Shown here piece by piece: positions 3,919 through 54,971 of a stretch of 64,000 bases of DNA; position 1 is the stretch's first letter; every line of letters starts with the position of its first letter. The DNA is from a virus: positions 1 to 64,000 of the IMG/VR virus record IMGVR_UViG_3300027823_000006; one strand, written 5' to 3'. The notes under the pieces were generated by a model. That model saw only the letters and a list, made by a program, of their open reading frames with translations, was not told the DNA's origin and searched no databases. Position numbers and translations under genes: made by a program.

Positions 3919-3926
3919 ATGATAGG
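3919..3926 (-). promoter_or_regulatory. Candidate promoter, variant box CCTATCAT
   Basis: Read on the minus strand, CCCTATCATTT sits 35 nt upstream of the 434-aa gene. It differs by one base from the CCTATAAT box found before other minus-strand genes. No TTGACA-like -35 is visible at the usual distance. Confidence 0.35.
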
Positions 3927-3955
3927 GCGGGACTCTCAAATATCCAACAGTTGCA

Positions 3956-4168
3956 CTAACCGAGGGCGTGAGCCTTCGGAGCGGCTGCCGCCATTGGAGG
4001 AGCAGAAGAAGTTGGCGGCGCCAAAGAAGTGCCTGGCTGTGGTCGCGAACCTGTCGCGGCTTGACCGCCGAGCATCGGATTTGCGCCAGCTGCACCCGTT
4101 TGTATATTGCTGAGCTTGAAGCGTGTGAGTGCGTCAGCTCGGCCTTTGTTGTACGCGTCGTTGATCAT
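3956..4168 (-). CDS. Small Pro/Ala-rich protein with shared N-terminal peptide (70 aa)
   Basis: The product starts MINDAYNKGRADALTRFKLS, the clearest example of the N-terminal peptide shared by five neighbouring genes. The remainder is a Pro/Ala/Gly-rich tail containing SAPPMAAA, a string also present in the 135-aa paralogue at 6404-6811. It overlaps the stop of the upstream gene by 4 nt (ATGA) and is probably translationally coupled. It looks like a shortened relative of the 135-aa gene, lacking that protein's C-terminal helix-rich part. The function is unknown. Confidence 0.7.
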   Translation of the reverse strand: MINDAYNKGRADALTRFKLSNIQTGAAGANPMLGGQAATGSRPQPGTSLAPPTSSAPPMAAAAPKAHALG

Positions 4169-4611
4169 TGGTTTGGATTCTTTGGTTCACTGCTGAGCAA
4201 GTGGCCAACACCACGCCCGAGATGCGCACCCGCAGCTCCGAGCATAGGACCACCGATCATACCGAGCGCAGGGAAACCGTACGCGCTTCCTGCGATACCA
4301 CCAAGCGCACCAAGCGCGTTTGACAAAGTGCCTTCGTGTGGATTTGAGCGCATAGCAGACAATGCCATGAGGGGTGCGGCGACTGTACCCGCACGACCGA
4401 GCCAGTTCAGAGGCGCGCCTTTGACATCGGGCCACCAGACGTTCTTGTGTCCGAGTAGACCGCCGGGAGCGAACGCCTTGGGCCCTTCGACGAAGACACG
4501 TCCAGGTTGACCGATCGCCATACGTTTGACCGAATCAATAAAGCGTGACTCTTTGATCTGGAAACACGTGAGGGCATCGTCGATGCCCTTCGTATGTGCA
4601 CGCTCAAGCAT
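4165..4611 (-). CDS. Gly/Ala-rich small protein with shared N-terminal peptide (148 aa)
   Basis: It begins MLERAHTKGIDDALTCFQIK, again the shared N-terminal peptide. From about residue 75 it becomes Gly/Ala-rich and hydrophobic (GALGGIAGSAYGFPALGMIG and onward), the composition of glycine-zipper or membrane-inserting segments. Its start overlaps the stop of the beta' C-terminal gene, and its own stop overlaps the next start. A membrane-active virion protein used in DNA entry would fit, but that is inference only. Confidence 0.7.
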   Translation of the reverse strand: MLERAHTKGIDDALTCFQIKESRFIDSVKRMAIGQPGRVFVEGPKAFAPGGLLGHKNVWWPDVKGAPLNWLGRAGTVAAPLMALSAMRSNPHEGTLSNALGALGGIAGSAYGFPALGMIGGPMLGAAGAHLGRGVGHLLSSEPKNPNQ

Positions 4612-6392
4612 CAGTAATGGCCCTCTTCGCCTAAGCCAAACTCAGTGCCTGCAACGTACGCAGGTACGGGTGACGCTCCATGCAAGTTCGAAACATCACC
4701 ACGGTGGATGCCCGTCAACAGTGACTCTTTCAAGTAACGGTGTGCGAGACGTGCCATCCAATCAGGGTTGAGCAGCGGCGTACGTGACGCGGGCCGCATG
4801 AAAGGCAGTGCGCGCGGACCGGGATTCGCGGTCGCGACGGTCGTGATTCCGTGGCGAACGAGTTGATCGACCATCGGCTGCGTCATGGACGTGCCCGCAG
4901 TGTGATGTAGGACGCCTTCGGCAAGCGTTTCGCCGATCGCGTCTGCCGTCGGACGCCGTTGTTTCGACGCAGCGACCGCCGACTGGAACTGGTTGTAGTT
5001 GACGATGTCACCTTTGAGAAAGGCATCGTGCGGACCTGGGTCTGTGATCTGAACGTGGTTGAGCACGCTCTTGGCCAAGATTTCCAGGTGCCGTTTGTCG
5101 ATCTCGGAGCCGGCACGTTTGTAGACGTCCGAGAGCGCGTCGACGAGGTAACGCCGTCCTTCGCCGAGTCCCTTGTGTTGAACGATTTCGTCTGGCTTGG
5201 GAACGCCGTCTGAGAGCAGGTCGCCCGCGTACATTGACTGGCCGACGTTGACCGTCACCTTGTGCGCGGGCGGTACGTAGTGACTGCCGGCGCCGACGAA
5301 GACGAAGTGACCGCCTTGTGGTGCCTTGTCGATCTTTGACACCGACCCGTCACGATCCGAGAGCACGGCCTTGTGCGCGAACGACGATGGAATCTCGAGC
5401 AGTGCTCGCACGCCTTTGATGCCCTCGAGCCGCTTCTCGTCGTCGACACCAACCACACGTCCGCCGTGCTTGGCGTTGAGCGCGAACTGGGTGAGAGGTT
5501 CCGCGAGGGCCTGTGCCGCGCGTACGCCGATGTTCGTCCCGATGGGGTGGGCGTGTCCTGACGTCGACAAGCCCTGGCAGTGTTGACAGACACCGTGTGC
5601 GGCCTGACAAGTCATCGGTGAACGCACGATGACGTCCTTGCCTTCTTTGGCGAGGTGCGACGCAAGCTGCGGCGTGATCAGTTGATTCGTGCCTGCCAGG
5701 TACCGATCGATGATGTGGGCATCGGTCGGAAGCATCGCGAGACCATTGTGCGTTCCGCAGTCGACGGACGACACGAGCTGGTCGCCCATGTTGTTGACGA
5801 GAATTTTGGCAAGGTCTCCTGGTTCAACGACCGAAATGTTCGAGACCACCGCATTGACGCGCGCCTGCCCGCCCATCACCCATGCGTCTGCCGGCTTGAG
5901 TCCTTCGGAGAAGCTCTTGTTGACGAACCACGGGATGACTTTCCCTTTGGAATCTTCGGCAAACACCGGCGCTCCAACCGTACGCATGAGCTGCGCGGCG
6001 TTGCCGCGTCCGCCAGCACGTACCATCTCACCCATCGTGCCGGGGTGATTGCGCGCGAGGTTGAGCATCGCGTTCTGCCCGCCGATGAGGGCCTTGATCT
6101 TGTCGGGGTTGTTCGTCGCCTGGTGGAACGCGTCAGCGTGCGGCTTCAACGCGGCGTCACGGTCGGTTGCGTGCGGTGCAATGTCGTCGAGACCGACGGA
6201 AATTCCGTCGAGCGTAGCGACCTCGTCACCCAGCCTTTTGAGCCGTGTCACGACGTCGGGGTACTTGTGCACGTCGTCCTTGGCCACACCCAGAAGCATG
6301 GTGTTCAACGCGCCCTTGGTCAGAACGCCGCCACCCTTCCACTTCTGTGGAAGGATCGAATCGACGAGATGTTGGCCAAGGGTCGTCGGCAT
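4611..6392 (-). CDS. DNA-directed RNA polymerase beta' subunit, C-terminal part
   Basis: This 593-residue protein matches the second half of bacterial beta'. It starts in the segment before the bridge helix, with GISVGLDD (E. coli SVGIDD). It then has AGGRGNAAQL (E. coli SGARGSAAQI), an EGLKPADAW...QARVNAV bridge-helix equivalent (about residues 163-199), four zinc-binding cysteines (212, 262, 269, 272; DCGTH and TC-x6-C-x2-C), and IGTNIGVRAAQALAEP leading into a trigger-loop region with a conserved His (about 309). A SDVYKRAGSEIDKRHLEIL segment matches the C-terminal VYRLQGVKINDKHIEVI region. It supplies the bridge helix and trigger loop missing from the gene at 7186-11601. The Shine-Dalgarno is weak. 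It is separated from its partner by two small genes. Confidence 0.93.
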   Translation of the reverse strand: MPTTLGQHLVDSILPQKWKGGGVLTKGALNTMLLGVAKDDVHKYPDVVTRLKRLGDEVATLDGISVGLDDIAPHATDRDAALKPHADAFHQATNNPDKIKALIGGQNAMLNLARNHPGTMGEMVRAGGRGNAAQLMRTVGAPVFAEDSKGKVIPWFVNKSFSEGLKPADAWVMGGQARVNAVVSNISVVEPGDLAKILVNNMGDQLVSSVDCGTHNGLAMLPTDAHIIDRYLAGTNQLITPQLASHLAKEGKDVIVRSPMTCQAAHGVCQHCQGLSTSGHAHPIGTNIGVRAAQALAEPLTQFALNAKHGGRVVGVDDEKRLEGIKGVRALLEIPSSFAHKAVLSDRDGSVSKIDKAPQGGHFVFVGAGSHYVPPAHKVTVNVGQSMYAGDLLSDGVPKPDEIVQHKGLGEGRRYLVDALSDVYKRAGSEIDKRHLEILAKSVLNHVQITDPGPHDAFLKGDIVNYNQFQSAVAASKQRRPTADAIGETLAEGVLHHTAGTSMTQPMVDQLVRHGITTVATANPGPRALPFMRPASRTPLLNPDWMARLAHRYLKESLLTGIHRGDVSNLHGASPVPAYVAGTEFGLGEEGHY

Positions 6393-6403
6393 GGTTCAAC
6401 GTT

Positions 6404-6811
6404 TCAGAAACTGCCCGGCATCATCTGCTGCTGCCGCGCCTGCGCCTGCTCCTGCTTGTGCTTGTGCATCAAGTAGAGACCGCCGCCTGCGAGGAGCGAC
6501 GGCGCGAGAGTCTTGAGATTGCCGAGCGCAGCACCGCGAGCTGCCGCACCTAGCTCGGGGGACGCTGCTCCGCCGAGGCCTTGGCGCATATTGCCCAGAA
6601 GGTCCTTCGCGGCCCCGAGCTGGCCACTGCCGAACGCTTTGGCCTTGTCCATGAAACCGCCGCCGCCCGCACTGGCGGCAGCCGCAGCCGGTGCTGCTGC
6701 CATTGGCGGAGCGCTGAAGCGACTCCCGCCACCTGGTTTACCCAGCGACATGCTGACCTTGAAACGCACCATCGCGTCAATGCGACCCTGGTTAACAAAA
6801 CGATCGAGCAT
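6404..6811 (-). CDS. Small virion-type protein lodged between the two polymerase genes (135 aa)
   Basis: It begins MLDRFVNQGRIDAMVRFKVS, the shared N-terminal peptide. A Gly/Pro/Ala linker with SAPPMAAAP follows, then an Ala/Gly/Leu-rich part with a hydrophobic stretch (LAPSLLAGGGLYLM) and a Lys/Gln-rich end (HKHKQEQAQARQQQ). GGAGG lies 6-8 nt before the ATG, and the start overlaps the stop of the next upstream gene by one base. Its hydrophobic segment could insert in a membrane. The function is unknown. Its place inside the split beta' locus is the notable point. Confidence 0.72.
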   Translation of the reverse strand: MLDRFVNQGRIDAMVRFKVSMSLGKPGGGSRFSAPPMAAAPAAAAASAGGGGFMDKAKAFGSGQLGAAKDLLGNMRQGLGGAASPELGAAARGAALGNLKTLAPSLLAGGGLYLMHKHKQEQAQARQQQMMPGSF

Positions 6812-7179
6812 CAGACGCCTCCAAAGCCGGTTGGTTGTCCCATATCACTAACGCGGTTCCCCGCATCGCCGGCCGCAAGGTTCGACGGTGCGCCCCACGA
6901 CACTTGTCGATCGAGCGGGTCACGCGAGGCAAGCTGAACGGCGGGTGAAACACCCTCTTCGAGCTGCTTGAACATGTCCGCGAGGTTGTTCGCGTTGCCC
7001 TCGATCTCGTCAGCTGCTTTCTTCGCGCCGCGGTCCGCTTCTGTTTTGTGGGCCGCGTCGAATCCGTGAAACGTACGGCTCGGGATTTTCAGCCGCAGCT
7101 CCTCGGCTGCGTTCTTGAGACCGAACCGCACGAGAGCGGCGACCACGCCTCGACCGTGCGCGTTGCTGACGAAGGACAC
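6811..7179 (-). CDS. Small protein with shared N-terminal peptide, leaderless start (122 aa)
   Basis: A GTG start gives MSFVSNAHGRGVVAALVRFGLK, a slightly longer form of the shared N-terminal peptide. The rest is polar (RTFHGFDAAHKTEADRGAKKA and onward) with no recognised domain. There is no Shine-Dalgarno. A TATAAT box on the minus strand ends 5 nt before the GTG, so a transcript from it would be almost or fully leaderless. It begins 6 nt after the stop of the beta/beta' gene. Confidence 0.65.
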   Translation of the reverse strand: MSFVSNAHGRGVVAALVRFGLKNAAEELRLKIPSRTFHGFDAAHKTEADRGAKKAADEIEGNANNLADMFKQLEEGVSPAVQLASRDPLDRQVSWGAPSNLAAGDAGNRVSDMGQPTGFGGV

Positions 7180-7184
7180 GCTTT

Positions 7185-7192
7185 ATTATAGG
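7185..7192 (-). promoter_or_regulatory. CCTATAAT box, candidate phage promoter
   Basis: The minus strand reads GCACCTATAATAAAGC before the GTG of the 122-aa gene. The box includes the TAA stop of the beta/beta' gene (CTA TAA T). There is no -35-like hexamer, which would in any case lie inside the polymerase gene, and no Shine-Dalgarno. Distance from box to start codon is 5 nt. Confidence 0.5.
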
Positions 7193-10100
7193 TGCTTGCC
7201 TTTGATTTCGATGGGGTCGTTGAGGGTGATGTCCCCGCGGTGGTACGCCGCCATCGCTTCTTCTTGCGACTCGAAGTGCTTGAGCTTCTTATTGGTGGCC
7301 ACCTGCGTGGCACGGTGCAGCCCGAGCACGGCCTCCATGTCAGGCGCGATGTTCAAGACGCCGGGACGTTTGTCCGCGAAGATCAGGTGCGAGAGCGTCA
7401 TCTTTTTGACGTCTTCGATGCCTCCAGGTGTTACCGGAGCGTGGATCTGTAGCGCATCCCCATCGTAGTCCGCGTTCATCCCTTTTTCAGCGAACGGGTT
7501 TAGCTTGAGCGTCTTTCCCTCAACAATCTTGGGATACGCCCCCACGATGTTGAAACGATGCAATGACGGTGCTCGGTTGACCATGACCGGACGTTCATGT
7601 GATTCATTGATCAATTCATCCCGTGCAGTCGGGACACGATCATCCACCATCTTCTGCGCATCCGTTGCTGTATAGCCGCGTCGGACCAAGCGCCCGATGA
7701 CGAACTTTCCATACATGCCCCAGAGCATGCCTTCAGGCACGCCAATCTCGTCCATTGACAAGGTAGGGTCAGGCGCGATGGTCGCGCGACCACTGACGTC
7801 TTGTTGACGCTTCATGATCTTGGACTGGAAGAACCCACTTCCAGGGCGCGTACCTGTGATGGCCGCGAGGTAGCCTTTGGCTCCGCGCTTCTCTGCACCT
7901 GGGCTGACGGGGTCACCCACGCCGTAAAGCGCGCTCACCGCGTCGTAGAGATGTTGACGAGGCATCGGAAGTTCCGACGACGGCAACGTCTTCGCTGATT
8001 CTCGGAGTTGGTGGTTCGCGAGGAATGCATCCTTGTAGAGGAGGTTCGCATCGCTGACCTGCAGTCGCCCATCTTGAAGCGGAAGGATTGGACGAATCAC
8101 GGGCGGTGTCACGGGCACCATTGAGATGACGTAGGCGTCCGCAGGCTTGAGGCCACGTTCCTTTAGCGCCCCGAGATACTTGATCTGCTTCACCACACCA
8201 TCGAGCGCTGGTCCGCGCGCCTTCTTTGACTGTGCTGTCAGGTCCTTCAGTTTGTTGTCGACGTGAATCTCATTGAGTGCGGTTTTGAACCACTGCCCGC
8301 CTTTGCCGACGCGCTCCGTGAACTCCTTCTGCGTGAGCCCAAGCAGTCGACGGACCGGCTCTTCGAACACTGGGTTGACGATCGGTTCGTGCAAATCGAC
8401 GTGTGACCATTTCGTTCCTGCCATACCGCCGGTCATGCCGGGGTCGAACAGACCGTGTGTCTCGGGACGAAGGTCCTTGGCGCGAATGAGCTTGCTCGGA
8501 TCCTTGAGCGCACCTGAGGACATCGACTTGACGTCGGCGTCGGTCAAAGGTCCCAACGCGAGCCTCGAGCCTGTCTTTGTGACCTTGACGCCGGCGCCCG
8601 TAAGCATGCTCTGCAGCTTGTCGTAGGCGAACGGCGTCTTGGGCGAGGGTGTTGGAAGCCCGAGTTGAATTGCACGCCAGAACTCGTCGTTACGTTGGCT
8701 CTTGATGGACGCAGCTTCACGCAACACATTCCGGGCGTTGTGTGCCACGAGCCCGTCGAACTCCATCTTGCCGATGCCCTTGGCGCCTTCGTCACCACCA
8801 CGTGCGGGCTGCTGGTTGTAGTCGTACTTCTCGGCGCCGTGTGCTGCCCAGTTCGAGTCCGTCGTCTTGAACAGCTTGAGGATGTAGCTCTTGCCCACGA
8901 CGATGTTCGGGATTTTCTTTCCCGTCATCGGGTCGAGGACCGTTTCCTTGTCGGTGAGCCCGTGCTCCTTGAGCAGGTTCTTGGCGAACTGGATGTTGTC
9001 TCGGCCCGGCGTGTATTGCGGTACGACGATCGGTTTGCCGATCTTCTCAGCAACTTTGCCGAGCGCTGTCTCGATGACCTGCGCGGGGTTAATGCGCGAG
9101 ACGATGCCCGCGGAGGTGAACAGCAGGTCGACAGGGCGCCCGTGTTCGTCCTGGATCATCTGATGATCTGGGATGATCTTCGCGATGACGCCCTTGTTGC
9201 CGAATCGGTTGGACAGCTTGTCGCCGATTTGAAGCGTTTCTTGCGTACGAACAGATGCAGCGGCTTGCTTGGCGGTCTTGGCAACGTCGATCACCGTACC
9301 GGGATGGTCGTGCGTCCAGACTTGCGTGACTTCTTGATACGGCTTGACCAAGGACTTGGACAGCTTGCCAAGGAGGAGCGCGTCCCCCGTGACTTTGTTC
9401 TCTCGAATACCCGCGACAATCAAGTCACCCTTGTGCAATGTCGTACCGGGTTTGACGACACCGTCGTCGTCTAGCTTGTTGTACTGCTCTGCGGTGTAGC
9501 GACTGCCGAAGTACGTACGATGTTTTTCTCGACCTAGCTGAACATCACCGTCACGTGAGAGCGCGTGTTGGTACATGTGTTCGCTGGTGAGCTTGTCCGC
9601 AGCGCCTTGCGATACGACGATGCCATCGTTGGTGTTGAGGCCGCGGTAGGGCATGTACGCCACGCGCAGGTTGGTCCCGAGGGCGAGCGTTCCGTCCTTG
9701 GTGAAGTTCGAGTGCGCGAGGAGCTGGTCCTTTTCGACACGGTCGCCCACCTTCACGGTTAGCTCATTGTGGAGCATCGTCTTGGCAGCGAGCGGAAAGT
9801 GCACGTCGTAATGGAGTTTGTGAGGCTCCGTCGCTGCCACCTTCACACGTTCCAACCGCGTCTCGACTTCAGATGCGGCCTCAGATGCGTGTTTGTCTGT
9901 GTGCGGCGTGATGTGGATGTGATCGTCGTCGATCTTTGTGACCATGCCGGCGAAGCGCGCGGTTGGAACAATCAGTTTGACCATCTCTCGTTCGACAGAC
10001 GTCCCTGGCTTCCACGACGCGACCTGTACGAGCGGCGCTTCACGGTACGTGAGCGGCAATGCCTGGCCTTGGTGTTTGCTGGCCATGAGCACGCGGTTTG

Positions 10101-11601
10101 CCTGGATACCGTAGACCAACGGCAACAGGTTTGAGGTCGGCCCGTACTGATCAGCGACGTGTTCGAGCTGGTGCGTGACCTTGTCGGACGACACACGCGA
10201 CACCACTCCGTGCGCCATCGCATCGACCATTTTTCCTGGCCCGACATGTTCGCCAGGGAATGCGATGACGGACTTCGCCATGTCGCCCGCCTTGAGATAC
10301 GTCGCTGCGCCGCTCTTGATATCGCGCACGGGCGCGTAGAGGTTTCCCTTGTCATCACGCCGTGCGCCGATTGTTGCGCGCAGGTCCACGCCCACCTTGA
10401 AGCTTTCAGGCGTGCGTGCAGGGTCCAGAATTCCGAAGTGGGTTGGATGAACATCACGAGCCTCGAGGGGGATCGCGCGCTCGGACGCAATCGCACCTTC
10501 ACCAAGCATCGTGACGCGTGACGCCTCGTCGAGCAGCTCCATCGGATTGATCTGCATGGGGACCGCCGAAAGCGACGAGCCCACCAAGAGACCGTGCATC
10601 GAACGCGTGAACGGTCCTGCGGGCAGCGCCTTCTTCAGGTTGCCGTGGCTCGCGTCCAGTTTCCAGCCAAGCTTTGCGCGCATCGCACGCGCTTCCAGCT
10701 GAACCCGTTCTTTGACGAAGTCGTCTACGGAGTGAAACGTTTTGAACGCCAACGAGTCACGGTCGTCGACATCGGCGGCGGCCCTGTGCACGTTGAGCAG
10801 TTTCTTGGATGCCGCCAGGATCGACGATGACGAAGCTTTGTCGTACGGATAACCGAGCGTGTGTGCAGTGACCTCAGGGTCCATCGCCGTTGCACTGAAG
10901 TATTCACGCAACGCGTGTGCTCGATCTTCTGTGGTCGCTGCGACCTGTTTCGCGGGATGGATGAGCGTCTCGTAAAGCTTGCTGACGTGCTTGTCTGGAT
11001 TCTTCCAAGCGTCACGATTCATGCCCGCGATTTCGGAGCCCCATCCGGCCGCGATGTCCTGATGCGGCATCCCCAGCGCGCGTAGGATGGGATGCAACGG
11101 GATCTTGGTCGTCGTGTGTGACGGCTGCATGTAGAGGAGGCCCTTCTCGGGCTCCATCGACACACGGAAGTTGGCGCCCTTTGAAAGGTTGAACGTCGCC
11201 TCCAGCTCTTCGTTGCCGCGGCGACGGACGTACGCGCCTGGTTTGGTGCGCAGCTGATTCGATACGGAGTACTCTGTGCCGTCGAGGATGAACGTGTGTC
11301 GCGGCGTAAAGTACGGCAGCTGAAGCAGTGTGAAGTCCTTCGAGTGGTCGACGACACCGCCCGCCGCGTTCTTGACCGTGATGTCACCGCGTACACGTTC
11401 CGATAACGTCTTGCCTTCGAGCACCGCACGCTTCTGTTCGCGGGAGGAAAACTCCTGCGGGTCCACCCGAACGTTGGACAGCTCGACCATGTGTTTGCCC
11501 GCCTTCAGCGGGAACGATTGTTCGAGACCCTCGATGACCTTCTTGCGGATCATCTCGCGACGCGTGGCCGCGTCTTCGAGCATTGGGCGTAGCGGCACCA
11601 T
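7186..11601 (-). CDS. DNA-directed RNA polymerase, beta subunit fused to N-terminal part of beta'
   Basis: This 1471-residue protein joins two classical subunits. The beta part covers residues 1 to about 980. It has FILDGTEYSVSNQLRTKPG (~105), MPYRGLNTNDGIVVS (~650), the catalytic-site lysines in GDKLSNRFGNKGV (K795, K803), VDLLFTSAGIVSRINPAQ (~825), and the C-terminal anchor QQPARGG...GKMEFDGLVAH (~930-955). The beta' part follows: LRPETHGLFDPG (~1045), clamp helices (~1185-1225), VSGRATI (~1269), VNRAPSLHRF (~1341) and the Mg-binding NADYDGD (1376-1382). The match ends around E. coli beta' residue 550. The N-terminal zinc finger of beta' is missing. It makes RNA together with the 4611-6392 product and, by inference, a phage sigma factor; no alpha or omega gene was found here. 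Confidence 0.95.
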   Translation of the reverse strand: MVPLRPMLEDAATRREMIRKKVIEGLEQSFPLKAGKHMVELSNVRVDPQEFSSREQKRAVLEGKTLSERVRGDITVKNAAGGVVDHSKDFTLLQLPYFTPRHTFILDGTEYSVSNQLRTKPGAYVRRRGNEELEATFNLSKGANFRVSMEPEKGLLYMQPSHTTTKIPLHPILRALGMPHQDIAAGWGSEIAGMNRDAWKNPDKHVSKLYETLIHPAKQVAATTEDRAHALREYFSATAMDPEVTAHTLGYPYDKASSSSILAASKKLLNVHRAAADVDDRDSLAFKTFHSVDDFVKERVQLEARAMRAKLGWKLDASHGNLKKALPAGPFTRSMHGLLVGSSLSAVPMQINPMELLDEASRVTMLGEGAIASERAIPLEARDVHPTHFGILDPARTPESFKVGVDLRATIGARRDDKGNLYAPVRDIKSGAATYLKAGDMAKSVIAFPGEHVGPGKMVDAMAHGVVSRVSSDKVTHQLEHVADQYGPTSNLLPLVYGIQANRVLMASKHQGQALPLTYREAPLVQVASWKPGTSVEREMVKLIVPTARFAGMVTKIDDDHIHITPHTDKHASEAASEVETRLERVKVAATEPHKLHYDVHFPLAAKTMLHNELTVKVGDRVEKDQLLAHSNFTKDGTLALGTNLRVAYMPYRGLNTNDGIVVSQGAADKLTSEHMYQHALSRDGDVQLGREKHRTYFGSRYTAEQYNKLDDDGVVKPGTTLHKGDLIVAGIRENKVTGDALLLGKLSKSLVKPYQEVTQVWTHDHPGTVIDVAKTAKQAAASVRTQETLQIGDKLSNRFGNKGVIAKIIPDHQMIQDEHGRPVDLLFTSAGIVSRINPAQVIETALGKVAEKIGKPIVVPQYTPGRDNIQFAKNLLKEHGLTDKETVLDPMTGKKIPNIVVGKSYILKLFKTTDSNWAAHGAEKYDYNQQPARGGDEGAKGIGKMEFDGLVAHNARNVLREAASIKSQRNDEFWRAIQLGLPTPSPKTPFAYDKLQSMLTGAGVKVTKTGSRLALGPLTDADVKSMSSGALKDPSKLIRAKDLRPETHGLFDPGMTGGMAGTKWSHVDLHEPIVNPVFEEPVRRLLGLTQKEFTERVGKGGQWFKTALNEIHVDNKLKDLTAQSKKARGPALDGVVKQIKYLGALKERGLKPADAYVISMVPVTPPVIRPILPLQDGRLQVSDANLLYKDAFLANHQLRESAKTLPSSELPMPRQHLYDAVSALYGVGDPVSPGAEKRGAKGYLAAITGTRPGSGFFQSKIMKRQQDVSGRATIAPDPTLSMDEIGVPEGMLWGMYGKFVIGRLVRRGYTATDAQKMVDDRVPTARDELINESHERPVMVNRAPSLHRFNIVGAYPKIVEGKTLKLNPFAEKGMNADYDGDALQIHAPVTPGGIEDVKKMTLSHLIFADKRPGVLNIAPDMEAVLGLHRATQVATNKKLKHFESQEEAMAAYHRGDITLNDPIEIKGKHL

Positions 11602-11633
11602 GAGTTACGCGTCCTTTTTGGTACAAGACTCCA

Positions 11634-12011
11634 CTAGGGCAGCCGTCGCGGTCGTTCGACAGGCTCGGCATCGCCTGCGTCTCGATCGTGTGCTGGTGCT
11701 GGACGCGCAAGCGGCGTCAGGTAGACCAGCGCAACCATGAAGTCCCCCTCCTTGGAGAATGTACGGACCTCGTAGCGCATGATCGCTTCACCGCGCAGGA
11801 CTTGGTTCATGACGTCTTCGTAGGCTTCTCGATCAGCCGGGAGCGCAAAGACTTCGGAATGCGCCTCGTAGTCTTGGACAGGTCCTGCACGATTCGGCTG
11901 TTGCGCTTCGAACGCAACACGGCCGGGCCCGTTGAACAGGCTGCCCATGTCGCCACCGATGCGCTGGGCTTTCTCGATGACGTCGGCGAAGTCTTCAGAC
12001 TCTTGAGGCAT
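11634..12011 (-). CDS. Hypothetical protein between portal and RNA polymerase (125 aa)
   Basis: A small acidic/mixed protein beginning MPQESEDFADVIEKAQRI and ending in an Arg/Pro-rich tail. AGGA lies about 10 nt before the ATG. It sits 15 nt downstream of the portal gene and 32 nt upstream of the polymerase gene in the same direction, so it is probably co-transcribed with them. No domain was recognised. A head-assembly or polymerase accessory role is possible but unsupported. Confidence 0.65.
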   Translation of the reverse strand: MPQESEDFADVIEKAQRIGGDMGSLFNGPGRVAFEAQQPNRAGPVQDYEAHSEVFALPADREAYEDVMNQVLRGEAIMRYEVRTFSKEGDFMVALVYLTPLARPAPAHDRDAGDAEPVERPRRLP

Positions 12012-12026: not shown

Positions 12027-13817
12027 TCAACCCACGGCGCCTGGAGGGGGCACTCCGTTGGCTGCGGGATCGCCGCCTTGGCGGGCCGCTGCGATCGCTT
12101 GCTGGTTTTGCTGCGTGGTCTGGTCGTGCAGACGTTCCTTGACCACGGCGTACATCACCATGTCTTCGGTCTGAAGCGCGTGCATTTGCGATTGCCGCGT
12201 TCCCGGGTCCAACCCCATCAGTTGTTGCACGAGCTGATCTGCCTCTGCGATCACGGCCTGCTGGTCGTAGGACAGCCCTTGCTGACCTTGCTGAGCCTGC
12301 GCACGTGCCTGGGCTCCAAGGTTGTTCTGCCGCTTCTGCATCTCGACCTGCAGCTCTTGCGCGACACGCGCATCGTCGAGCGCCTCTTGCTTGCGCCACT
12401 TGCGCTCGTCGCTTGGATCGATGTCGAACGCCACGCCGATCGTGCGCTTGGAAATCCAAGGACCCGTCGATGGGTCTGCGCCGTTGAGCTGCAGCAGAAG
12501 GGATTTCTGTTGGACGTCGTCGATGAAACGGAACGGAGCGAGCGAGACCACCACGGTGCCACGTCCGAGCTGCTTCGCGGATTTGTCAGTGACCCATTGA
12601 AGAAGGTCATTGAGGTCGCCGGTTTGGTGGACGAGCTGATTCTCGAGGACGCGCAACTGAATGCCCGAGCCCATCGCGGAGAAACCTCCGTAGATGAACT
12701 CCTTGGGCAACCCCATCGCTGCAATGATGTTGTCTTCAGCCGCCTGGACTTCGCCGAGCGTCATGAGTGCGCGCGCCTGTCCACCGAGGTGTGTGACTTC
12801 GGCGGGGATTGGCGACCACATGATGTGCAGTGGATCGCGGCGCCACTTCTTGACCGACGTCTTCATCTCCTCGGACCACTTGGCCAAGGAGATGGTGGTC
12901 ATCGGATCAGCGTTTGCCGTCGACTGCTTCGGCGAGATGATGCGCAGGGGAACGATGTACTCGAGCGCGATGGCCTCGTTCGCCTTACGCAGCACAGCCG
13001 CGTAGAAGAACAGCTTGATCGTCGACGCGAGTGGCGGGAAGCCCCACTGCGCTTCGATACCCGCAGGCGCATCCATGCGCATGTGGAAGACTTGACCCTC
13101 GTCGAACTTGAAGATCTTGTCCTCGCGGATCGCCTTCAAGAACTCCATCGGCATGGTGTCGATGAGGTGCTTGTTCCCCTTGGCGCAACGCTCCTTAATT
13201 TCCTTGGGGATCGTGTAGTAGTACTCGCTGTGTCCGGTGATGGGGTTGTAGTCGATGTCCATCAGCTTCGGATCCCAGCGGATCACTGAGATACGATCCT
13301 TGCGTGTGATCTTGCGATCGATGACGTCCTTGTCAGTGACGTCGACGCGAACGCTGCAGCCCTTGCACGTGTAGTTGAACGCCAGCTTCTTCAACTTGAA
13401 CTTGTAGGTGACCTGCTGGATGTTGGTCAGCGTCGCGCACTTCGGACACTTGAGGAAGCGAACGAACGGCGCGTACATCGAGAAGAACGCGTTTCCGTAG
13501 ACGAACTTGTCGACGGCCGCACGGATCAAGATGCGTTTGGTCTTGAGCGTCTTGTTGTGTAGGTCTTCGTAGTAATCCTTGAGCGCTTCGTTCTGCGTCT
13601 CGTAGACGATGTCCGTGACGGGATACGTACAGAACTTCTGCAATGCCGCGTAGATCTGGGCGCTGTTGAAGTAGAGGTACTCGCAAAGACGAAAGAGGTC
13701 CTTGAGCTTCCTAGGCGCGAACGCCGTGAGGAAGTCGAACAGTGGACTACCGTGTGACGACGTGTTGTGCGTCGACAGATCGGAAACGCCCGAGTCGAAC
13801 ATTCCATCAATGGCCAT
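12027..13817 (-). CDS. Portal protein with inserted zinc ribbon
   Basis: The portal forms the dodecameric DNA channel at the capsid vertex. This 596-residue protein has the portal pattern. An N-terminal alpha/beta region is followed by a stretch with DEGQVFHMRMDAPAG, WGFPPLASTIKLFFYAAVLRK and EYIVPLRII (about 260-315). The crown/stem region includes AEDNIIAAMGLPKEFIYGG and LRVLENQL, and the C-terminus is a Gln/Ala-rich coiled region. Unusually, residues 124-154 carry CPKC...CKGC (C-x2-C-x23-C-x2-C), a probable zinc ribbon. A TATCAT box lies 21 nt upstream. The large terminase that should dock on it is encoded 15 kb away. Confidence 0.85.
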   Translation of the reverse strand: MAIDGMFDSGVSDLSTHNTSSHGSPLFDFLTAFAPRKLKDLFRLCEYLYFNSAQIYAALQKFCTYPVTDIVYETQNEALKDYYEDLHNKTLKTKRILIRAAVDKFVYGNAFFSMYAPFVRFLKCPKCATLTNIQQVTYKFKLKKLAFNYTCKGCSVRVDVTDKDVIDRKITRKDRISVIRWDPKLMDIDYNPITGHSEYYYTIPKEIKERCAKGNKHLIDTMPMEFLKAIREDKIFKFDEGQVFHMRMDAPAGIEAQWGFPPLASTIKLFFYAAVLRKANEAIALEYIVPLRIISPKQSTANADPMTTISLAKWSEEMKTSVKKWRRDPLHIMWSPIPAEVTHLGGQARALMTLGEVQAAEDNIIAAMGLPKEFIYGGFSAMGSGIQLRVLENQLVHQTGDLNDLLQWVTDKSAKQLGRGTVVVSLAPFRFIDDVQQKSLLLQLNGADPSTGPWISKRTIGVAFDIDPSDERKWRKQEALDDARVAQELQVEMQKRQNNLGAQARAQAQQGQQGLSYDQQAVIAEADQLVQQLMGLDPGTRQSQMHALQTEDMVMYAVVKERLHDQTTQQNQQAIAAARQGGDPAANGVPPPGAVG

Positions 13818-13860: not shown

Positions 13861-15846
13861 ATGGGTCGAGCCCAAATGGAAATCCGTGTCGGTCGTGCGG
13901 GCAACGGAACGCCCGTCTTCCTGGTACACGGCCAGAACCAAACGTTCGGACGCGTGTTTGGTGCAACGTGGGACAGCGATCGCGCGCTGTGGATGTACCC
14001 CGCGTTCTATCCGGCATCCAGCAAGGTGCTTGCTGACTTCCAGGCCGTGTCCTCCGACGTCAACGTTGTGATCTCCGACGTTGCGCAACGGCACATCGAA
14101 GACCTCGAACAGGTTCGCCAACGGCTCGAGGCCCAAGCTCTGCCCGTCGGATTCGAGTACGTCACGTCGCCGTATCAGCATCAGGTCGAAGGACTCTGTC
14201 ACGTCTTCTACAACATGCGGGCAGCGTTGTTCTACGATCCAGGGCTCGGCAAGTCGAAGATCGCGATCGACCTCATCCGGCTTCTGCGCCATACCGGCAA
14301 TACAGCAACTGCACTCGTACTCGGCCCGCGTGTCACGGTCCGGAACTGGGGTCGTCAGATCGACCTTCACTCGGGCCGCCAGGTGACGTGGGCAGCGCTG
14401 GTCGGAACGCCCAAACAGAAGCGCGCGATCCTCGATCGCGCGGCGGCCGAGGGCACCGACATGGTTCTTTCGACGTACGACACTGCGAGAAGTTTAGTGG
14501 ATTTGCTCGTAGAACGGCTGCCTTACAGCATTCTGGTCTGCGATGAAAGCCACGGCGTGAAGACCTGGCAGTCCGAGCGGACGAAGACAACATGGGAGAT
14601 CGCACAGAAGGCGATGCGCCGAATCCTCATGACGGGCTCGCCTACCGAGGGCAATCCGCTGGACCTGTATGGCCCTTACAAGATCCTGGGCGATTGCTTC
14701 ATGCCCGAGACGTACTGGAAATACAAAAAAACGTTTGTCGTCACTCGCGGTCCCAACTCACCCATCGTGGTTGGTTACAAGAATCTCGACGTTATCAATG
14801 CACGTACCACGTTCTTGGCGATACGTCGTACTAAAGAGCAGTGTCTGGACCTGCCGGAACGCACGTTCGTAGACGTAGATTATTCACTATCTCGCGCCCA
14901 ATCGGTCGCCTACGACAAGATCGTCATTGATATGGGTATCGACCCTGCAGGTCTTGCGCAGCTCGGTATCCAGATTCGTTCTGGTGAACCTGGGGTGATA
15001 CCTCTATTGCCGCACCAACTCTCAGCGGTCGAGATGCCACACCGTGCGGCTGCGTTGATGAAACTTCTCCAGATCACGTCGGGCTTTCTCATCAAGAGCG
15101 AGAAGGACCCGTTCTATTGCGATACGATTCGTGATGGTACTCCGTGTGAACACCGTGACGATTGTACGGCGCGTCAGATCAACCCTCGAACCCCGCGTTG
15201 TCTGGTAGACCCGACACCTTGGCCTTCAACGACCATCGTATTCGATGAGAATCCCAAACTCGATGCGATCATGGAATTGCTTACCAGCATCCTCGATTCG
15301 TCGACTCATAAGGTGATCATCTGGTGCAACTTTCACATCGAGATGGATCTGATTGAAGAGCGTTTTACCAAAGAAGAGATTGGCCACGTTCGTGTTGACG
15401 GCAATACGCGTGACCCGATGGTCGCTGTCGATGCGTTCAATGACGATCCCGCCGTACGTGTTTACATTGGGCAAGTTACGACAGGCCTAGGCATCACGTT
15501 GAACTCCGCTACATACACGGTCTATAGCTCCTTGCCGTACTCGTTAAATTCGTACTCTCAGTGCTTGGACCGTAACTATCGAATCGGGCAAAACAACAAG
15601 GTTACCGTTAACCGGATGATCGGTCACGGCACGCTTGAACTCGCCGTGGCACATCTACTCGATCACAAGGTCGATGTTGACTCGATGCTCACGAACAAGA
15701 TCGAGTGCGCCTTGTGTCCACATACGGTGAAGTGCCTTGCTAAAGGTGTCGAACCCTTTCAAGAGGGGTGTGTTCACCCGAAGAAAGTGGACCGTCCCGT
15801 CATCAAGGCGTATGCCTTGCCCATGCTCCGTGAAAGGACCAAATGA
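13861..15846 (+). CDS. SNF2/SF2-type helicase
   Basis: An ATP-driven DNA translocase, 661 residues. After an N-terminal domain of about 95 residues comes SPYQHQVEGL (Q-motif-like, ~100), Walker A DPGLGKSK (~126), motif Ia LVLGPRVTVRNW, the DESH box (~227), MTGSPTEGNPLDLYG (motif III), and a second lobe with KVIIWCNFHIEMDLI, VTTGLGITLNSA and the diagnostic CLDRNYRIGQ (motif VI, ~566-575). A cysteine cluster (C-x8-C-x6-C-x13-C, ~419-449) lies between the lobes and another near the C-terminus (CALC...C...C, ~612-635), both possible zinc sites. It heads a plus-strand operon with overlapping genes. Remodelling of forks or recombination intermediates is likely; the exact role is unknown. Confidence 0.9.
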   Translation: MGRAQMEIRVGRAGNGTPVFLVHGQNQTFGRVFGATWDSDRALWMYPAFYPASSKVLADFQAVSSDVNVVISDVAQRHIEDLEQVRQRLEAQALPVGFEYVTSPYQHQVEGLCHVFYNMRAALFYDPGLGKSKIAIDLIRLLRHTGNTATALVLGPRVTVRNWGRQIDLHSGRQVTWAALVGTPKQKRAILDRAAAEGTDMVLSTYDTARSLVDLLVERLPYSILVCDESHGVKTWQSERTKTTWEIAQKAMRRILMTGSPTEGNPLDLYGPYKILGDCFMPETYWKYKKTFVVTRGPNSPIVVGYKNLDVINARTTFLAIRRTKEQCLDLPERTFVDVDYSLSRAQSVAYDKIVIDMGIDPAGLAQLGIQIRSGEPGVIPLLPHQLSAVEMPHRAAALMKLLQITSGFLIKSEKDPFYCDTIRDGTPCEHRDDCTARQINPRTPRCLVDPTPWPSTTIVFDENPKLDAIMELLTSILDSSTHKVIIWCNFHIEMDLIEERFTKEEIGHVRVDGNTRDPMVAVDAFNDDPAVRVYIGQVTTGLGITLNSATYTVYSSLPYSLNSYSQCLDRNYRIGQNNKVTVNRMIGHGTLELAVAHLLDHKVDVDSMLTNKIECALCPHTVKCLAKGVEPFQEGCVHPKKVDRPVIKAYALPMLRERTK

Positions 15847-18572: not shown

Positions 18573-19046
18573 ATGCAGGTTCAGAGGATCGACAACATGT
18601 TCAATTTCACGTTCGAGAAGACCGCAGACGAGATTGTCACGGCCGCCAAGAAGAAGAAGAGCGTCGACATCCGCAACAAGATCGAAGAGCGCGGCGTACG
18701 CATTCAGAAGATGCGCACGAAACACAAGGTCACTGATGCCGTACTCATCGACATCCAGAACCAGATGCGCACACAGGAAAAAGCAAGGCAGCGTAACCGG
18801 ATGTCATACACGTCGAACGCTCAAACGAGCACTGGCGGCGTACAGGAGGAAGTCACCATCGGCACCGGCGTCATCAACTTCCTGCTCACCGAGCAGGACC
18901 ACATGGACGGCGAGAAGTCTCAGGTCGAATGGCTCGAGACGATCATCCGTAACTTGCGTGACGTGACGGGCTACACCGCGAACGGGACGCCCATCGTGGT
19001 CAAGCCAAAGCTCGGCTATGAAGAGCTGAAGTACCTCGGGTTCTAG
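18573..19046 (+). CDS. Hypothetical protein with basic helix (157 aa)
   Basis: A charged, probably helical N-terminal half (ADEIVTAAKKKKSVDIRNKI and onward) is followed by a more mixed C-terminal part (TGVINFLLTEQDHMDGEKS, GYEELKYLGF). It is the last gene of the plus-strand operon, and its stop overlaps the convergent sigma-factor stop by 4 nt. No family was recognised. Confidence 0.7.
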   Translation: MQVQRIDNMFNFTFEKTADEIVTAAKKKKSVDIRNKIEERGVRIQKMRTKHKVTDAVLIDIQNQMRTQEKARQRNRMSYTSNAQTSTGGVQEEVTIGTGVINFLLTEQDHMDGEKSQVEWLETIIRNLRDVTGYTANGTPIVVKPKLGYEELKYLGF

Positions 19047-19870
19047 AGATACGCGTCTTCGGCGGTCAGCAGCTCTTCTTCGAACTCAGCCTGAAGTAAG
19101 CGCATCCCGTTGGTCTTGATTTGCCGAACTCGCTCAGAGCACATGCCCATGATGGCCGCGATCTGGACCAAGTTCCGTGCATCGTCTTTGATGCCGTAGA
19201 AGAGGTTGAGGACGGTCTGCTCTCGGGAAGGCAGTCGACCAATGACCTCACGAACGATCGAACGAAGCCGATCCGACCCATAGGTAGACGTCGGCTCACT
19301 CTCGGTCGCATTGGTGGTGTAACGCGCCGCCTCGAGCGGCATGACGACGCTCTCGGACAGTCCGGGGTTCATCTTCTGCACCGAGGCAGCATCGGGTCCG
19401 TGCTCTTGGACCGCCGCGCGGAACTCCCGTGCGTTTCTGCGTTGTGCTTTCTGGCGATGGGCGGGGACGTGAACGAGCGTGGCCGTCGTGTAGTCCTGAT
19501 TCGACATCTCTTCGTAGACCCACCAACCCGCGTACGTCAGAAAGCGAATGTACGGTTTGCGTACCCAGTCAAACTTGTCGGTCGCCTTAAGGAGACCCAG
19601 GTTTCCTGCCGCGATGAAGTCCTTGACGGCTTCGGGATCCTTGCTGCGCTTGTGCGCCATCTTCACGACGAAGCGGAGATGGGTTTGCACGATGGCGTTG
19701 CGTGCCTTGACGTCTTGATGTTGCTGCCATCGTTGCAACAGGCGCCTCTCTTCGGTGGGGTCATCCACCAACGGCACCCGTGCGACTTCGGCGTAGTACA
19801 TCGAGGCGGTACGCGCCTGGGGGATCACCATATTCAAGAACACACTACCAAGCGTCTTACGAGTGATCAA
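19043..19870 (-). CDS. Sigma-70 family RNA polymerase sigma factor
   Basis: A 275-residue sigma factor. Region 2 spans about residues 50-140: ARNAIVQTHLRFVVKMAHKR, DFIAAGNLGLLKATDKFDW (region 2.1-2.2 core-binding), then FLTYAGWWVYEEMSNQDY (2.3-2.4, -10 recognition). Region 4 is near the C-terminus: LPSREQTVLNLFYGI and LVQIAAIMGMCSERVRQIK, a helix-turn-helix. The listed start is TTG without a clear Shine-Dalgarno; an ATG 13 codons in (MVIPQARTA) is an alternative. It is encoded alone on the minus strand between two plus-strand operons. It may direct host or phage core polymerase; the CCTATAAT boxes are candidate targets. Confidence 0.9.
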   Translation of the reverse strand: MITRKTLGSVFLNMVIPQARTASMYYAEVARVPLVDDPTEERRLLQRWQQHQDVKARNAIVQTHLRFVVKMAHKRSKDPEAVKDFIAAGNLGLLKATDKFDWVRKPYIRFLTYAGWWVYEEMSNQDYTTATLVHVPAHRQKAQRRNAREFRAAVQEHGPDAASVQKMNPGLSESVVMPLEAARYTTNATESEPTSTYGSDRLRSIVREVIGRLPSREQTVLNLFYGIKDDARNLVQIAAIMGMCSERVRQIKTNGMRLLQAEFEEELLTAEDAYL

Positions 19871-53156: not shown

Positions 53157-54226
53157 TAGAGAGGTCCTTGTTCAATACCGCCAACCACCCACACACCCTT
53201 TTCGAAGTCGAACACCATTGGAGCGGTCACCTTAGAGAATGGCTGCTCCTTAAACGCGGCCGTCGCCGCATACAGCGTGCTCTGTCGATTGTTGAGCGTC
53301 TGTTGGATAAAGGTGTCGTGCCGTGATTGCGCCAATTTGGTGGCAGACGTGTCTTGGTTCTGTAACGACGTCGCCCGGTCTAAGCTCTGGATAATAACGG
53401 CGGCGTCGCTCGCCATTGTTTGTGCACCGAATGCATTCAAAATAGGCATCACAATACTGCTGCCTAACCCTGTACCTGACGTCGAGTCCTGATGTCCGGG
53501 CCAGGCATTCGGAACGAAGGCAGTTGGACGAACGATGGTTACGATGGGGCCCGATACGAACGAGACTTGGATGGGCAGCACGGGATTTTTCTTCGAAAAT
53601 CCTGCGGGACCGCCGGTACCGCCGGCCTTTCCAATTTGCTGACCCTCGGTTACTTGGTTGCCCGGGGCGATGGCTGAGACGCTGACGCTGTCGAGGCGGA
53701 AGTACTCGGTGCGATAGCCTTCGAAATCCCCGCTGTGGAGGATTTGGATGATGATGCCACCTTCACCAACATCACGAGGCGTCGCGACGGCGTCGGACCC
53801 GCCTCCGTAGATGTTGCCCTTGGAATCCGCGTGCGCGCTCTCCAAGTTCACGAGCCCGATCGTTTTTGACTGGAATCCGACGAAGACGACCGTGCCATCG
53901 GCCATCGCGAAGACGGGCTCGCCCGAGACGGCGTTGAAGTCCAGCGACCGATGTCCTGAATCCCAACCGCGCACCAATGACCGTTCACGCTGCTTTCCGA
54001 TCGAGAACGGACCTGTGGGCGCGAGCGGGGAGCCTAGCAAACGTTTGGTAGGGACCGGCGCTGTATCGTAGAAGCGCTGTTTGGTATCGGGGTCGTACTC
54101 GATGCCCGGTCGCTGCGCGTTGGCATCTGATGACGACTTATCACCCTGCGCTGAAGACGCGCGAGCGAGCCCCGTCCCCATTTCTTTGACGGATTCCCAC
54201 GGATCGGGCGGCTTTGGATCAGCCAT
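53156..54226 (-). CDS. M23-like baseplate protein, catalytic residues partly lost (356 aa)
   Basis: The central part follows the LytM/M23 fold: GHRSLDFNAVSGEPVFAMAD (H-x3-D, ~92), GTVVFVGF, GGIIIQILH, and GNQVTEGQQIGKAGGTGG. The active-site HxH is replaced (EYFRL where YAHL is usual) and the later P-LHFE is PIQVSF, so it should be inactive. Flexible N- and C-terminal parts flank this domain. A complete M23 domain is present in the hub protein at 54976-58602. This copy probably keeps a structural or binding role at the baseplate. Confidence 0.75.
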   Translation of the reverse strand: MADPKPPDPWESVKEMGTGLARASSAQGDKSSSDANAQRPGIEYDPDTKQRFYDTAPVPTKRLLGSPLAPTGPFSIGKQRERSLVRGWDSGHRSLDFNAVSGEPVFAMADGTVVFVGFQSKTIGLVNLESAHADSKGNIYGGGSDAVATPRDVGEGGIIIQILHSGDFEGYRTEYFRLDSVSVSAIAPGNQVTEGQQIGKAGGTGGPAGFSKKNPVLPIQVSFVSGPIVTIVRPTAFVPNAWPGHQDSTSGTGLGSSIVMPILNAFGAQTMASDAAVIIQSLDRATSLQNQDTSATKLAQSRHDTFIQQTLNNRQSTLYAATAAFKEQPFSKVTAPMVFDFEKGVWVVGGIEQGPL

Positions 54227-54971
54227 GGACCTTCTCCACGTGTTCGATGAGTTTCGCCTTGGCGTAGGAGTATTGCCCCTGCGTCATGCCGAGCTTCTTC
54301 TGGATCTCTTGATTCGAGAGCTGCTCGGCACCTCCGTAACCTGTCAAGTGCTCGAAGATGGCTTTGTGTTGCGGCGTCAGGGCGTGGTGAATGAAGTCGA
54401 CAACATGCTCCTGCTTGTCTCCATCATAGAGCCCTGCGTCACCCGTCTCGAACAGACCGCCTGACTCGAGCAGCTCCCTGCGGCCAATCGACTTCCGATA
54501 CGCCTCCACATGAGGGATTGGCCATCCGAGATGATCCGCAAGCTCGTCGGTCGTCGGTGCGCGTCCGTGCGCGTCCGAGAGGTCCGAGTGCGCAACGTTG
54601 TAGCTGTGGTAGAGCAGCATCTTGTTCTCAGGGAGCCGTGCAACGTTCTGATTCGCGTACGACAACCGAGACATCCGCTGAAGTTGGTTAACGACATGGG
54701 TGCCGAGCGCCGCACCCTTGTTCGGATCGTAGTTGTGGAACGCCTCCATCGCGAGACGCTTGCCTTCAGATTCCAAGAGAGGACGAGCCATCGTGCCCGC
54801 CCATTTGTTCGCCTCACGATGAATGAGCGGCGAAACGTGCGAGAGCAAAGCAGACGCGTTTGCGTCCGTCGGACTCTTCTTCCACGCATGCCACGCATCA
54901 ATGTCTTGCGTCTGGCGATTCGTTACCGCCAGCTTTGCAAAACGAGACAGCGTGTTCGTCATAGAGGCCAT
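54219..54971 (-). CDS. Second sigma-factor-like protein, encoded inside the baseplate block
   Basis: A 250-residue protein with sigma-70 organisation. Region 2-like: ALLSHVSPLIHREANKWAG and AFHNYDPNKGAALGTHVVNQ, then YANQNVARLPENKM. Region 3-like: HGRAPTTDELADHLGWPIPH. Region 4-like helix-turn-helix: LTPQHKAIFEHLTGYGGAE, LSNQEIQKKLGMTQGQYSYA. The RLPENK and GRxPTxxELAxxLG phrases are typical of FliA/WhiG-type factors. It overlaps its downstream neighbour by 8 nt and starts 4 nt after the hub gene. This is unusual company for a transcription factor and suggests late expression or packaging in the virion. Confidence 0.8.
   Translation of the reverse strand: MASMTNTLSRFAKLAVTNRQTQDIDAWHAWKKSPTDANASALLSHVSPLIHREANKWAGTMARPLLESEGKRLAMEAFHNYDPNKGAALGTHVVNQLQRMSRLSYANQNVARLPENKMLLYHSYNVAHSDLSDAHGRAPTTDELADHLGWPIPHVEAYRKSIGRRELLESGGLFETGDAGLYDGDKQEHVVDFIHHALTPQHKAIFEHLTGYGGAEQLSNQEIQKKLGMTQGQYSYAKAKLIEHVEKVHG

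What the first reader, a model, noticed from the sequence alone, without database searches (positions are those of the whole stretch)
4611..11601. RNA polymerase in an unusual fused-and-split form, with two small genes inside the beta' break
One gene encodes all of beta plus beta' up to about E. coli residue 550, including NADYDGD. The rest of beta' (bridge helix, zinc site, trigger loop) is a second gene. The order on the strand is beta-beta'N, two small genes of the shared-peptide family, then beta'C. Beta/beta' fusions are known in a few bacteria and split beta' in others; this combination with inserted genes is not one I know.
Basis: partly seen in the sequence, partly recalled or inferred. 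Interest (0 to 1): 0.8.

Follow-up and report, generated by a model that had tools for sequence, protein, structure and literature searches.

The report
Phage RNA polymerase, fused then split
A large group of bacterial viruses makes a cell-type RNA polymerase from only two protein chains, one joining all of the beta subunit to the front of beta-prime and one carrying the rest of beta-prime, and in the one cultured relative studied by mass spectrometry both chains are found in the virus particle.

Summary
Confirmed. On the minus strand, 7186-11601 encodes beta joined to beta' up to about E. coli residue 555; a separate gene, 4611-6392, encodes beta' from about 570 on. The layout is not a local oddity: of 160 related loci with all parts, 160 have beta+beta'N in one ORF and beta'C in another (92 non-redundant contigs, gap 477-5716 bp). 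Salmonella phage Arash and Vibrio phages D69/D148/D181 share it. In one Desulfovibrio isolate the two genes are at least 26 kb apart. One divergent relative (L353) has all three parts in one ~2030-aa ORF, nested inside the group. A second group, probably mReC, has separate beta and unbroken beta' in 67 of 72 loci. Genes in the break are variable passengers. Published mass spectrometry of Arash virions detects the homologues of both chains (3516 and 1210 spectra) and of a sigma-like protein that the window also encodes. Most likely this is a virion-packaged, alpha-less, two-chain core using a packaged sigma first and a second sigma later (inferred). The parts are known kinds; the clade-wide combination was not found in print in the searches made. 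New variant of a known kind.

The parts
7186..11601 (-). beta-beta'N fusion, 1471 aa: all of beta, then beta' to about E. coli residue 555 (NADYDGD at residues 1376-1382, about 7456-7476)
4611..6392 (-). beta'C, 593 aa: beta' from about E. coli residue 570 on (zinc site, bridge helix, trigger loop)
6811..7179 (-). small gene 1 in the break, GTG start, 122 aa, N-terminal AHxxG...AL..F motif, WG-type tail at the C-terminus; passenger
6404..6811 (-). small gene 2 in the break, 135 aa, same N-terminal motif; passenger
12027..13817 (-). portal protein homologue (28% to Arash portal Gp204), upstream neighbour of the fused gene
11634..12011 (-). small gene between portal and fused gene, same place as Arash gp205
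54219..54971 (-). sigma-like protein (Pfam: only region 3, just under its cut-off), homologue of Arash Gp10 (33% over 228 aa), which is annotated as sigma and detected in Arash virions
19043..19870 (-). second sigma factor (regions 2 and 4), homologue of Arash gp196, which is not in the Arash virion list
13861..15846 (+). SNF2-type helicase; closest to Arash gp198, which is not in the virion list, and only weakly like the virion helicase Gp217

Best explanation
The two genes encode the whole catalytic core of a phage-encoded, cell-type RNA polymerase as two polypeptides: beta fused to beta'N (both double-psi barrels in one chain) and beta'C (zinc site, bridge helix, trigger loop). The chains are translated separately and assemble in trans (inferred). 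No alpha subunit was found in the genomes tested, so the covalent beta-beta'N link probably does the job that alpha2 does in bacteria, holding beta to beta' (inferred). The core is made with the structural genes and packaged in the virion with a sigma-like protein (published mass spectrometry for the homologues in Arash; inferred for the window), injected, and transcribes early genes; a second phage sigma would later redirect the same core (inferred). In Arash an SNF2 helicase is packaged too; its counterpart in the window's phage was not identified. The break behaves as a site that tolerates passenger genes. The fusion-plus-split most likely arose once at the base of the clade; how the split arose is not shown, though mobile introns and inteins repeatedly hit this gene.
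For: 160 of 160 loci with all parts are fused and split by six-frame HMM search. Control: 75 of 75 bacterial loci (L199-L273) are called separate and continuous by the same method (in one, L210, the beta' frame is broken inside the beta'C part). 21 fused taxa are separated from 9 others by a branch of SH-like support 1.000 (read from the Newick string). In Desulfovibrio sp. An276 beta'C is on another contig and no second copy lies in the 26 kb after the fused gene. No Rfam match in 3800-12200 at E<=1, while the same library detects group I introns in phage D181. Published Arash virion MS (section read): Gp206 3516 spectra, the most of any protein, 128 unique peptides; Gp216 1210; sigma Gp10 467; helicase Gp217 1148. 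Per residue (my arithmetic) about 2.3, 2.0, 2.0 and 2.4. No alpha (PF01000) in 12 of 12 genomes, 13 of 14 controls ringing. One full beta'C per genome in 12 of 12, with one weak extra fragment in Arash. Gp10-type sigma in 11 of 12.
Against: The virion data come from a distant relative (34% in the fused protein). The Arash authors note that abundant enzymes may merely be carried over, and their list of 116 proteins holds other cytoplasmic enzymes. No activity, copurification or promoter evidence exists here. Absence of alpha by sequence does not exclude a diverged alpha or use of host alpha, and the records may be incomplete. The second sigma was not found in 3 of 12 genomes, and its profile is general enough to match other sigmas. 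The window's SNF2 protein resembles Arash gp198, not the packaged Gp217. In D. piger and a third Desulfovibrio assembly the genes are on different contigs too, but close enough to contig ends that they could be a few kb apart.
Confidence: 0.75

Rival explanations
1. The halves are rejoined at RNA or protein level (intron, trans-splicing or split intein), so beta' is really one chain and the small genes sit in an intervening sequence.
For: Group I introns occur in the same gene of Vibrio phage D181, and intein-like insertions at conserved sites are common in the fused gene.
Against: No intron family match in the window stretch. The AF2 beta'C model aligns with beta' from its residue 1 and the fused protein ends where its homology to beta' ends, leaving little room for intein halves. 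In Arash six of the nine annotated gap genes are on the opposite strand. In Desulfovibrio sp. An276 the halves are at least 26 kb apart; this does not by itself exclude trans-splicing.
Confidence: 0.05
2. The polymerase is an intracellular, non-virion enzyme; its presence in Arash particles is carry-over.
For: The Arash authors raise this for the packaged enzymes; 116 proteins were detected, including ribonucleotide reductase and DNA ligase.
Against: The fused chain has the highest spectrum count of all Arash proteins; both chains, a helicase and a sigma occur at similar counts per residue (my arithmetic); the genes follow the portal gene.
Confidence: 0.17
3. The genes in the break encode extra subunits or assembly factors of this polymerase.
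For: The gap is at least 477 bp in 92 of 92 contigs. A WG-type C-terminal tail recurs in a number of gap genes near beta'C. The N-terminal motif is in gap ORFs of 35 of 92 contigs against 5 shuffled and 3 antisense.
Against: Gap content changes between lineages. L026 shows no plus-strand ORF of 50 aa or more in its gap, and L353 has no gap. The N-terminal motif is also in genes far from the polymerase and was not seen at the start of the Arash gap genes. The two Arash gap products found in virions have low counts (Gp210 111, Gp213 143).
Confidence: 0.12
4. The single chain seen in L353 is the ancestral form, and the split arose from it more than once at the same place.
For: L353 holds beta, beta'N and beta'C in one ORF.
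Against: In the FastTree tree two groups of fused-and-split phages branch outside L353 with SH-like support 0.989 and 0.982, so re-fusion is the simpler reading. L353 has a long branch, and the maximum-likelihood run with bootstraps did not finish.
Confidence: 0.15

Closest known systems
[quoted passage not shown] 2020, PMC7598289; passages and section 7 read)
   Same: Cell-type core without alpha or omega; beta' split after the catalytic double-psi barrel domain; virion form packaged.
   Different: There beta is itself split, the cores have at least four or five polypeptides, two polymerases occur per phage, and no recognisable initiation factors are encoded. Here beta is whole and joined to beta'N, two polypeptides, one full beta'C per genome tested, plus phage sigma-like proteins.
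mReC phages (Weinheimer & Aylward 2020, PMC7481178; abstract, Results part 1, detection methods and passages read)
   Same: Phage-encoded beta and beta' close enough to cellular enzymes to align.
   Different: A group found with RHph_Y65/Va2 beta', including two contigs (L304, L319) of the metagenome that holds mReC1 and mReC3, has separate beta and unbroken beta' in 67 of 72 loci. That it is mReC rests on the metagenome number, not on identical contigs. Gp23-type capsid protein was found in 4 of 8 of these records, but not in L304 or L319, and in none of 13 fused-clade records.
Salmonella phage Arash polymerase Gp206/Gp216 (PMC10585845; section 16 and passages read)
   Same: Same clade, same fused and split layout, both chains detected in virions.
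   Different: Annotated simply as beta and beta' subunits; the main text does not use the words fused, fusion or split. Nine annotated genes, six on the other strand, lie in the break.
Yersinia phage YerA41 (annotation read)
   Same: beta' in two genes.
   Different: beta is a separate gene, order beta'N, beta'C, beta, and the split lies further towards the C-terminus.
Cyanobacterial split beta' (RpoC1/RpoC2)
   Same: Split just after the double-psi barrel domain of beta'; model residue 16 pairs with residue 6 of RpoC2 (9dvs_F).
   Different: Split point differs by roughly 10 residues; beta is not fused, and alpha and omega are present (recalled).
crAss-like and YonO-type single-chain two-barrel polymerases (passages in PMC7481178, PMC7824862 and PMC10770324)
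   Same: Both barrels in one chain.
   Different: Those are single-chain and very diverged; here the jaw and trigger-loop part is a separate chain and similarity to bacterial subunits is plain.

Membership tests
Cell-type (multisubunit) RNA polymerase | beta and beta' catalytic motifs: two beta lysines, NADxDGD aspartates, second zinc site, trigger-loop histidine | tested here: met
Cell-type (multisubunit) RNA polymerase | alpha subunit | tested here: not met
   PF01000 absent in 12 of 12 genomes, controls 13 of 14; records may be incomplete and a diverged alpha could be missed
phiKZ/AR9-type jumbo phage polymerase | beta' split after the barrel domain | tested here: met
phiKZ/AR9-type jumbo phage polymerase | beta split into two or more polypeptides | tested here: not met
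   beta and beta'N in one ORF in 160 of 160 loci. Outside that set, beta is interrupted in L358 and, by an intron, in D181
phiKZ/AR9-type jumbo phage polymerase | two polymerases per phage | tested here: not met
   one full beta'C per genome in 12 of 12; a very diverged second polymerase could be missed
mReC | separate beta and beta' proteins, beta' unbroken (inferred from contigs of the same metagenome) | tested here: not met
mReC | major capsid protein of family PF07068 (stated for the eight detected in 97 contigs) | tested here: not met
   0 of 12 and none in D181; the same search rings in RHph_Y65, YerA41, Va2 (under cut-off) and 4 of 8 mReC-like records, though not in L304 and L319
Arash-type clade | portal, small gene, beta-beta'N in that order, separate beta'C | tested here: met
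Virion RNA polymerase | present in purified particles and active there | not testable with these tools
   presence is published for the Arash homologues; activity unknown

The most novel reading that the evidence does not exclude
A separate structural class of cell-type RNA polymerase: a two-chain, alpha-free core in which a covalent beta-beta'N joint replaces alpha2 as the assembly platform, delivered by the virion as a ready holoenzyme with its own sigma, then switched to later promoters by a second phage sigma. The clade holds a natural single-chain descendant (L353), so subunit fusion, splitting and re-fusion can be followed within one group.
Probability: 0.45. Interest if true: 0.78.

Novelty: new variant of a known kind. 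Interest (0 to 1): 0.63.

Why it matters
Phage polymerases are used to argue how the universal two-barrel enzyme was put together and whether split forms are ancient or derived (passages of PMC7824862, and PMC7598289). This clade adds a form between the many-chain jumbo-phage enzymes and the single-chain ones: both barrels in one chain, the moving parts in another, and one lineage with everything in one chain. With cultured members (Arash, Vibrio D69) it can be purified, and it makes the question of how a core assembles without alpha directly testable with two genes.

Tried and rejected
Assembly error: rejected. Intron in the break: no Rfam match at E<=1. The mReC-like group as the home of this phage: rejected on layout, with the capsid as weaker support. 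Saccharibacteria, the cellular matches that filled the genome scan (a pattern-limited list cut at 80): ordinary separate and unbroken genes. Linking the shared N-terminal peptide to virion packaging through Arash failed: a loosened pattern gave no match at the start of the gap or structural genes examined, its one match in 30 genes being inside Gp216. Pfam and PHROGs gave nothing for the two small genes at E<=0.1. A scan with the RHph_Y65 beta' alone found no relatives; the two-sequence profile did. The model of the junction fragment (707 aa) is weak overall (mean pLDDT 64.5), so it was used only as side evidence. IQ-TREE did not finish (first try stopped by a thread setting; then the time limit); trees are FastTree with SH-like support. 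RHph_Y65 and Va2 enter the trees without beta.

One search counts loci, and several loci can come from one contig; L001 was dropped. One search drops duplicates by the last 300 aa of the fused ORF and drops the window itself, which L012 represents. The 18 loci without beta'C end at most about 2.2 kb after the fused gene or inside it. Gap ORFs were chosen by a rough longest-ORF rule, and 119 of them, picked by hand's list plus two, went to Pfam. The N-terminal motif pattern was written from window examples, so its count in the window's own genome is partly circular. After checking, confidence in the best explanation was lowered from a first 0.78 because the window's SNF2 protein is not the counterpart of the packaged one and only one Desulfovibrio genome shows the two genes far apart.
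Full report
What is there. The minus strand of the window carries, in order, a portal homologue (12027-13817, 28% to the Arash portal), a small gene, a 1471-aa ORF (7186-11601), two small ORFs and a 593-aa ORF (4611-6392). Pfam places Rpb2 domains and then Rpb1 domains in the long ORF, and Rpb1 domain 5 in the last one. PDB sequence matches are to bacterial beta and beta'; residue 1466 of the fused protein pairs with beta' residues 550-551 of two of these chains. A predicted model of beta'C (mean pLDDT 79.7) matches bacterial beta' (Foldseek E 9e-29; VIA Z 30.3, rmsd 4.3, 491 residues for 9a4w_B), and its residue 1 pairs with E. coli 570. One structural row pairs the end of the fused protein with E. 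coli 555; most rows do not reach that end. Catalytic residues are invariant in the alignments. The window is the same sequence as part of a 175,415-base phage record, with 9 mismatches.

How general it is. Two direct scans and two profile scans of viral contigs plus two phage records gave the set for a six-frame HMM test. In one search, 160 of 160 loci with beta, beta'N and beta'C have the first two in one ORF and the third in another; 18 more have the fused gene at a contig end without beta'C. Removing duplicates leaves 92 contigs with both genes, gap 477-5716 bp, median 1475. The same test of 75 bacterial loci separate and unbroken, one of them (L210) with a broken frame. Cultured phages with the layout are Salmonella phage Arash and Vibrio phages D69, D181 (a group I intron sits in its fused gene) and, by tblastn of both proteins, D148. 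Four of 50,697 phage records hold the fused protein over at least 80% of its length. Five bacterial assemblies contain a fused gene. Three of them, all Desulfovibrio, have a phage-type beta'C on another contig. In Desulfovibrio sp. An276 the fused gene lies more than 26 kb from either end of its 64-kb contig, so the two genes are at least that far apart; in the other two, contig ends lie close enough that they could be neighbours a few kb apart. The Cloacimonadota assembly gave no beta'C match, and the Actinomycetota one only a match in a 1419-aa host-type ORF.

Exceptions and neighbours. A search with beta' of RHph_Y65 and Va2 found 72 loci, 67 with separate beta and unbroken beta'. Two of these contigs (L304, L319) come from metagenome 3300017989, the source of mReC1 and mReC3; I could not match contigs themselves. 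Gp23-type capsid protein, reported for mReC, is in 4 of 8 records tested but not in L304 or L319; the fused clade gave no such match in 13 records. Of the remaining five loci, L356 is fused and split, L358 is fused with beta also interrupted and no beta'C found, L360 and L361 are weak beta' matches, and L353 has beta, beta'N and beta'C in one ORF of about 2030 aa, with some 30 model positions missing at the usual break and no linker. In a FastTree tree L353 lies inside the fused clade (SH-like supports 0.989 and 0.982 for the groups outside it), on a long branch. An earlier 30-taxon tree separates 21 fused from 9 non-fused taxa with support 1.000 (the re-rooted drawing shifts this label, the Newick string was used). 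The reading is one origin of fusion plus split and one later re-fusion.

The break. It is not an intron by Rfam. Its genes vary: among 119 gap proteins Pfam finds LigD 3'-phosphoesterase in 18, LigD primase-polymerase in 15, ferritin-like in 12, LLH holin in 4, SNF2 in 3 and endonuclease VII in 2. One gap, L026, shows no plus-strand ORF of 50 aa or more. A short N-terminal peptide motif recurs in gap ORFs of 35 of 92 contigs, against 5 for shuffled and 3 for antisense ORFs, and in other late genes of the window's phage. Its role is unknown. The fused gene carries intein-like insertions of more than 200 aa at conserved sites in 22 of the 24 ORFs longer than 1700 aa, out of 111 distinct fused ORFs (my reading of the ends, no family search of the inserts was made).

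How it most likely works. Shown by others, section read (PMC10585845): in Arash virions the homologue of the fused chain has the most spectra of all proteins (3516, 128 unique peptides), the homologue of beta'C has 1210, the SNF2 helicase Gp217 1148 and the sigma Gp10 467. My division by length (lengths) gives about 2.3, 2.0, 2.4 and 2.0 spectra per residue, compatible with similar copy numbers; the portal gives about 1.5 and the major capsid protein about 4.3, so spectrum counts are only a rough guide. The authors suggest early transcription and also allow carry-over. The window has a homologue of Gp10 at 54219-54971 (33%), and this family is in 11 of 12 genomes tested. A second sigma at 19043-19870 matches Arash gp196, which is absent from the virion table; this profile matches in 9 of 12. 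The window's SNF2 protein is closest to Arash gp198, not to the packaged Gp217, although 12 of 12 genomes have some SNF2 protein. No alpha is found in 12 of 12, and there is one full beta'C per genome in 12 of 12. Inferred from this: one two-chain core, packaged with a sigma for early genes, redirected later by a second sigma, with the covalent joint doing the work of alpha.

Novelty. Splits after the barrel domain and beta-beta' fusions are known separately (jumbo phages and cyanobacteria, PMC7598289 section 7 read; bacterial rpoB-rpoC fusions recalled, one literature search listed nothing that I opened). Paper searches listed no description of the combination in what I saw; only some listed papers were opened. 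The Arash main text does not use the words fused, fusion or split, and in the mReC paper 'fused' and 'fusion' occur once each, both about crAssphage. The library holds only openly licensed papers, and supplementary files could not be read.

Noticed in passing
L353:4602-10700: One ORF of about 2030 aa holds beta, beta'N and beta'C without a gap: a single-chain relative nested among two-chain phages.
   Followed up: partly
L079, L132, L141, L153 and others; fused gene at window-protein residues ~412, ~797, ~1382: Intein-like in-frame insertions sit in the most conserved motifs, including directly after NADYDGD; L145 has three such insertions over 200 aa in one gene.
   Followed up: partly
L183:7458-7738 and 3661-3868: Group I introns in Vibrio phage D181, one in the polymerase gene that is uninterrupted in the sister phage D69.
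   Followed up: partly
window 29218-31896 (-): Large terminase gene with an insertion matching LAGLIDADG_3 weakly (under its cut-off), probably an intein.
   Followed up: no
gaps of L046, L047, L049, L055, L063 and others: LigD-like genes (primase-polymerase and 3'-phosphoesterase domains) between the two polymerase genes in a number of contigs: 18 of 119 gap proteins match LigD_N. Which loci carry them is my reading of the sequences.
   Followed up: partly
L196, L284, L286, L287: Cultured Desulfovibrio isolates carry phage-type portal and fused polymerase on one contig and beta'C on another: a resident or contaminating large phage.
   Followed up: partly
L021:15077-18400, L026:15245-18439, L028:6360-9287: beta'C ORF extended to 975-1107 aa; in the two scanned (L021, L026) the C-terminal extension has no Pfam match.
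   Followed up: no
window 2579-4611 (-) and 6404-7179 (-): Five neighbouring late genes share an N-terminal peptide of the type AYxxGxxxALxRF (read); six of 232 rough ORFs of the window's phage match a strict pattern, mean 0.25 in shuffles.
   Followed up: partly
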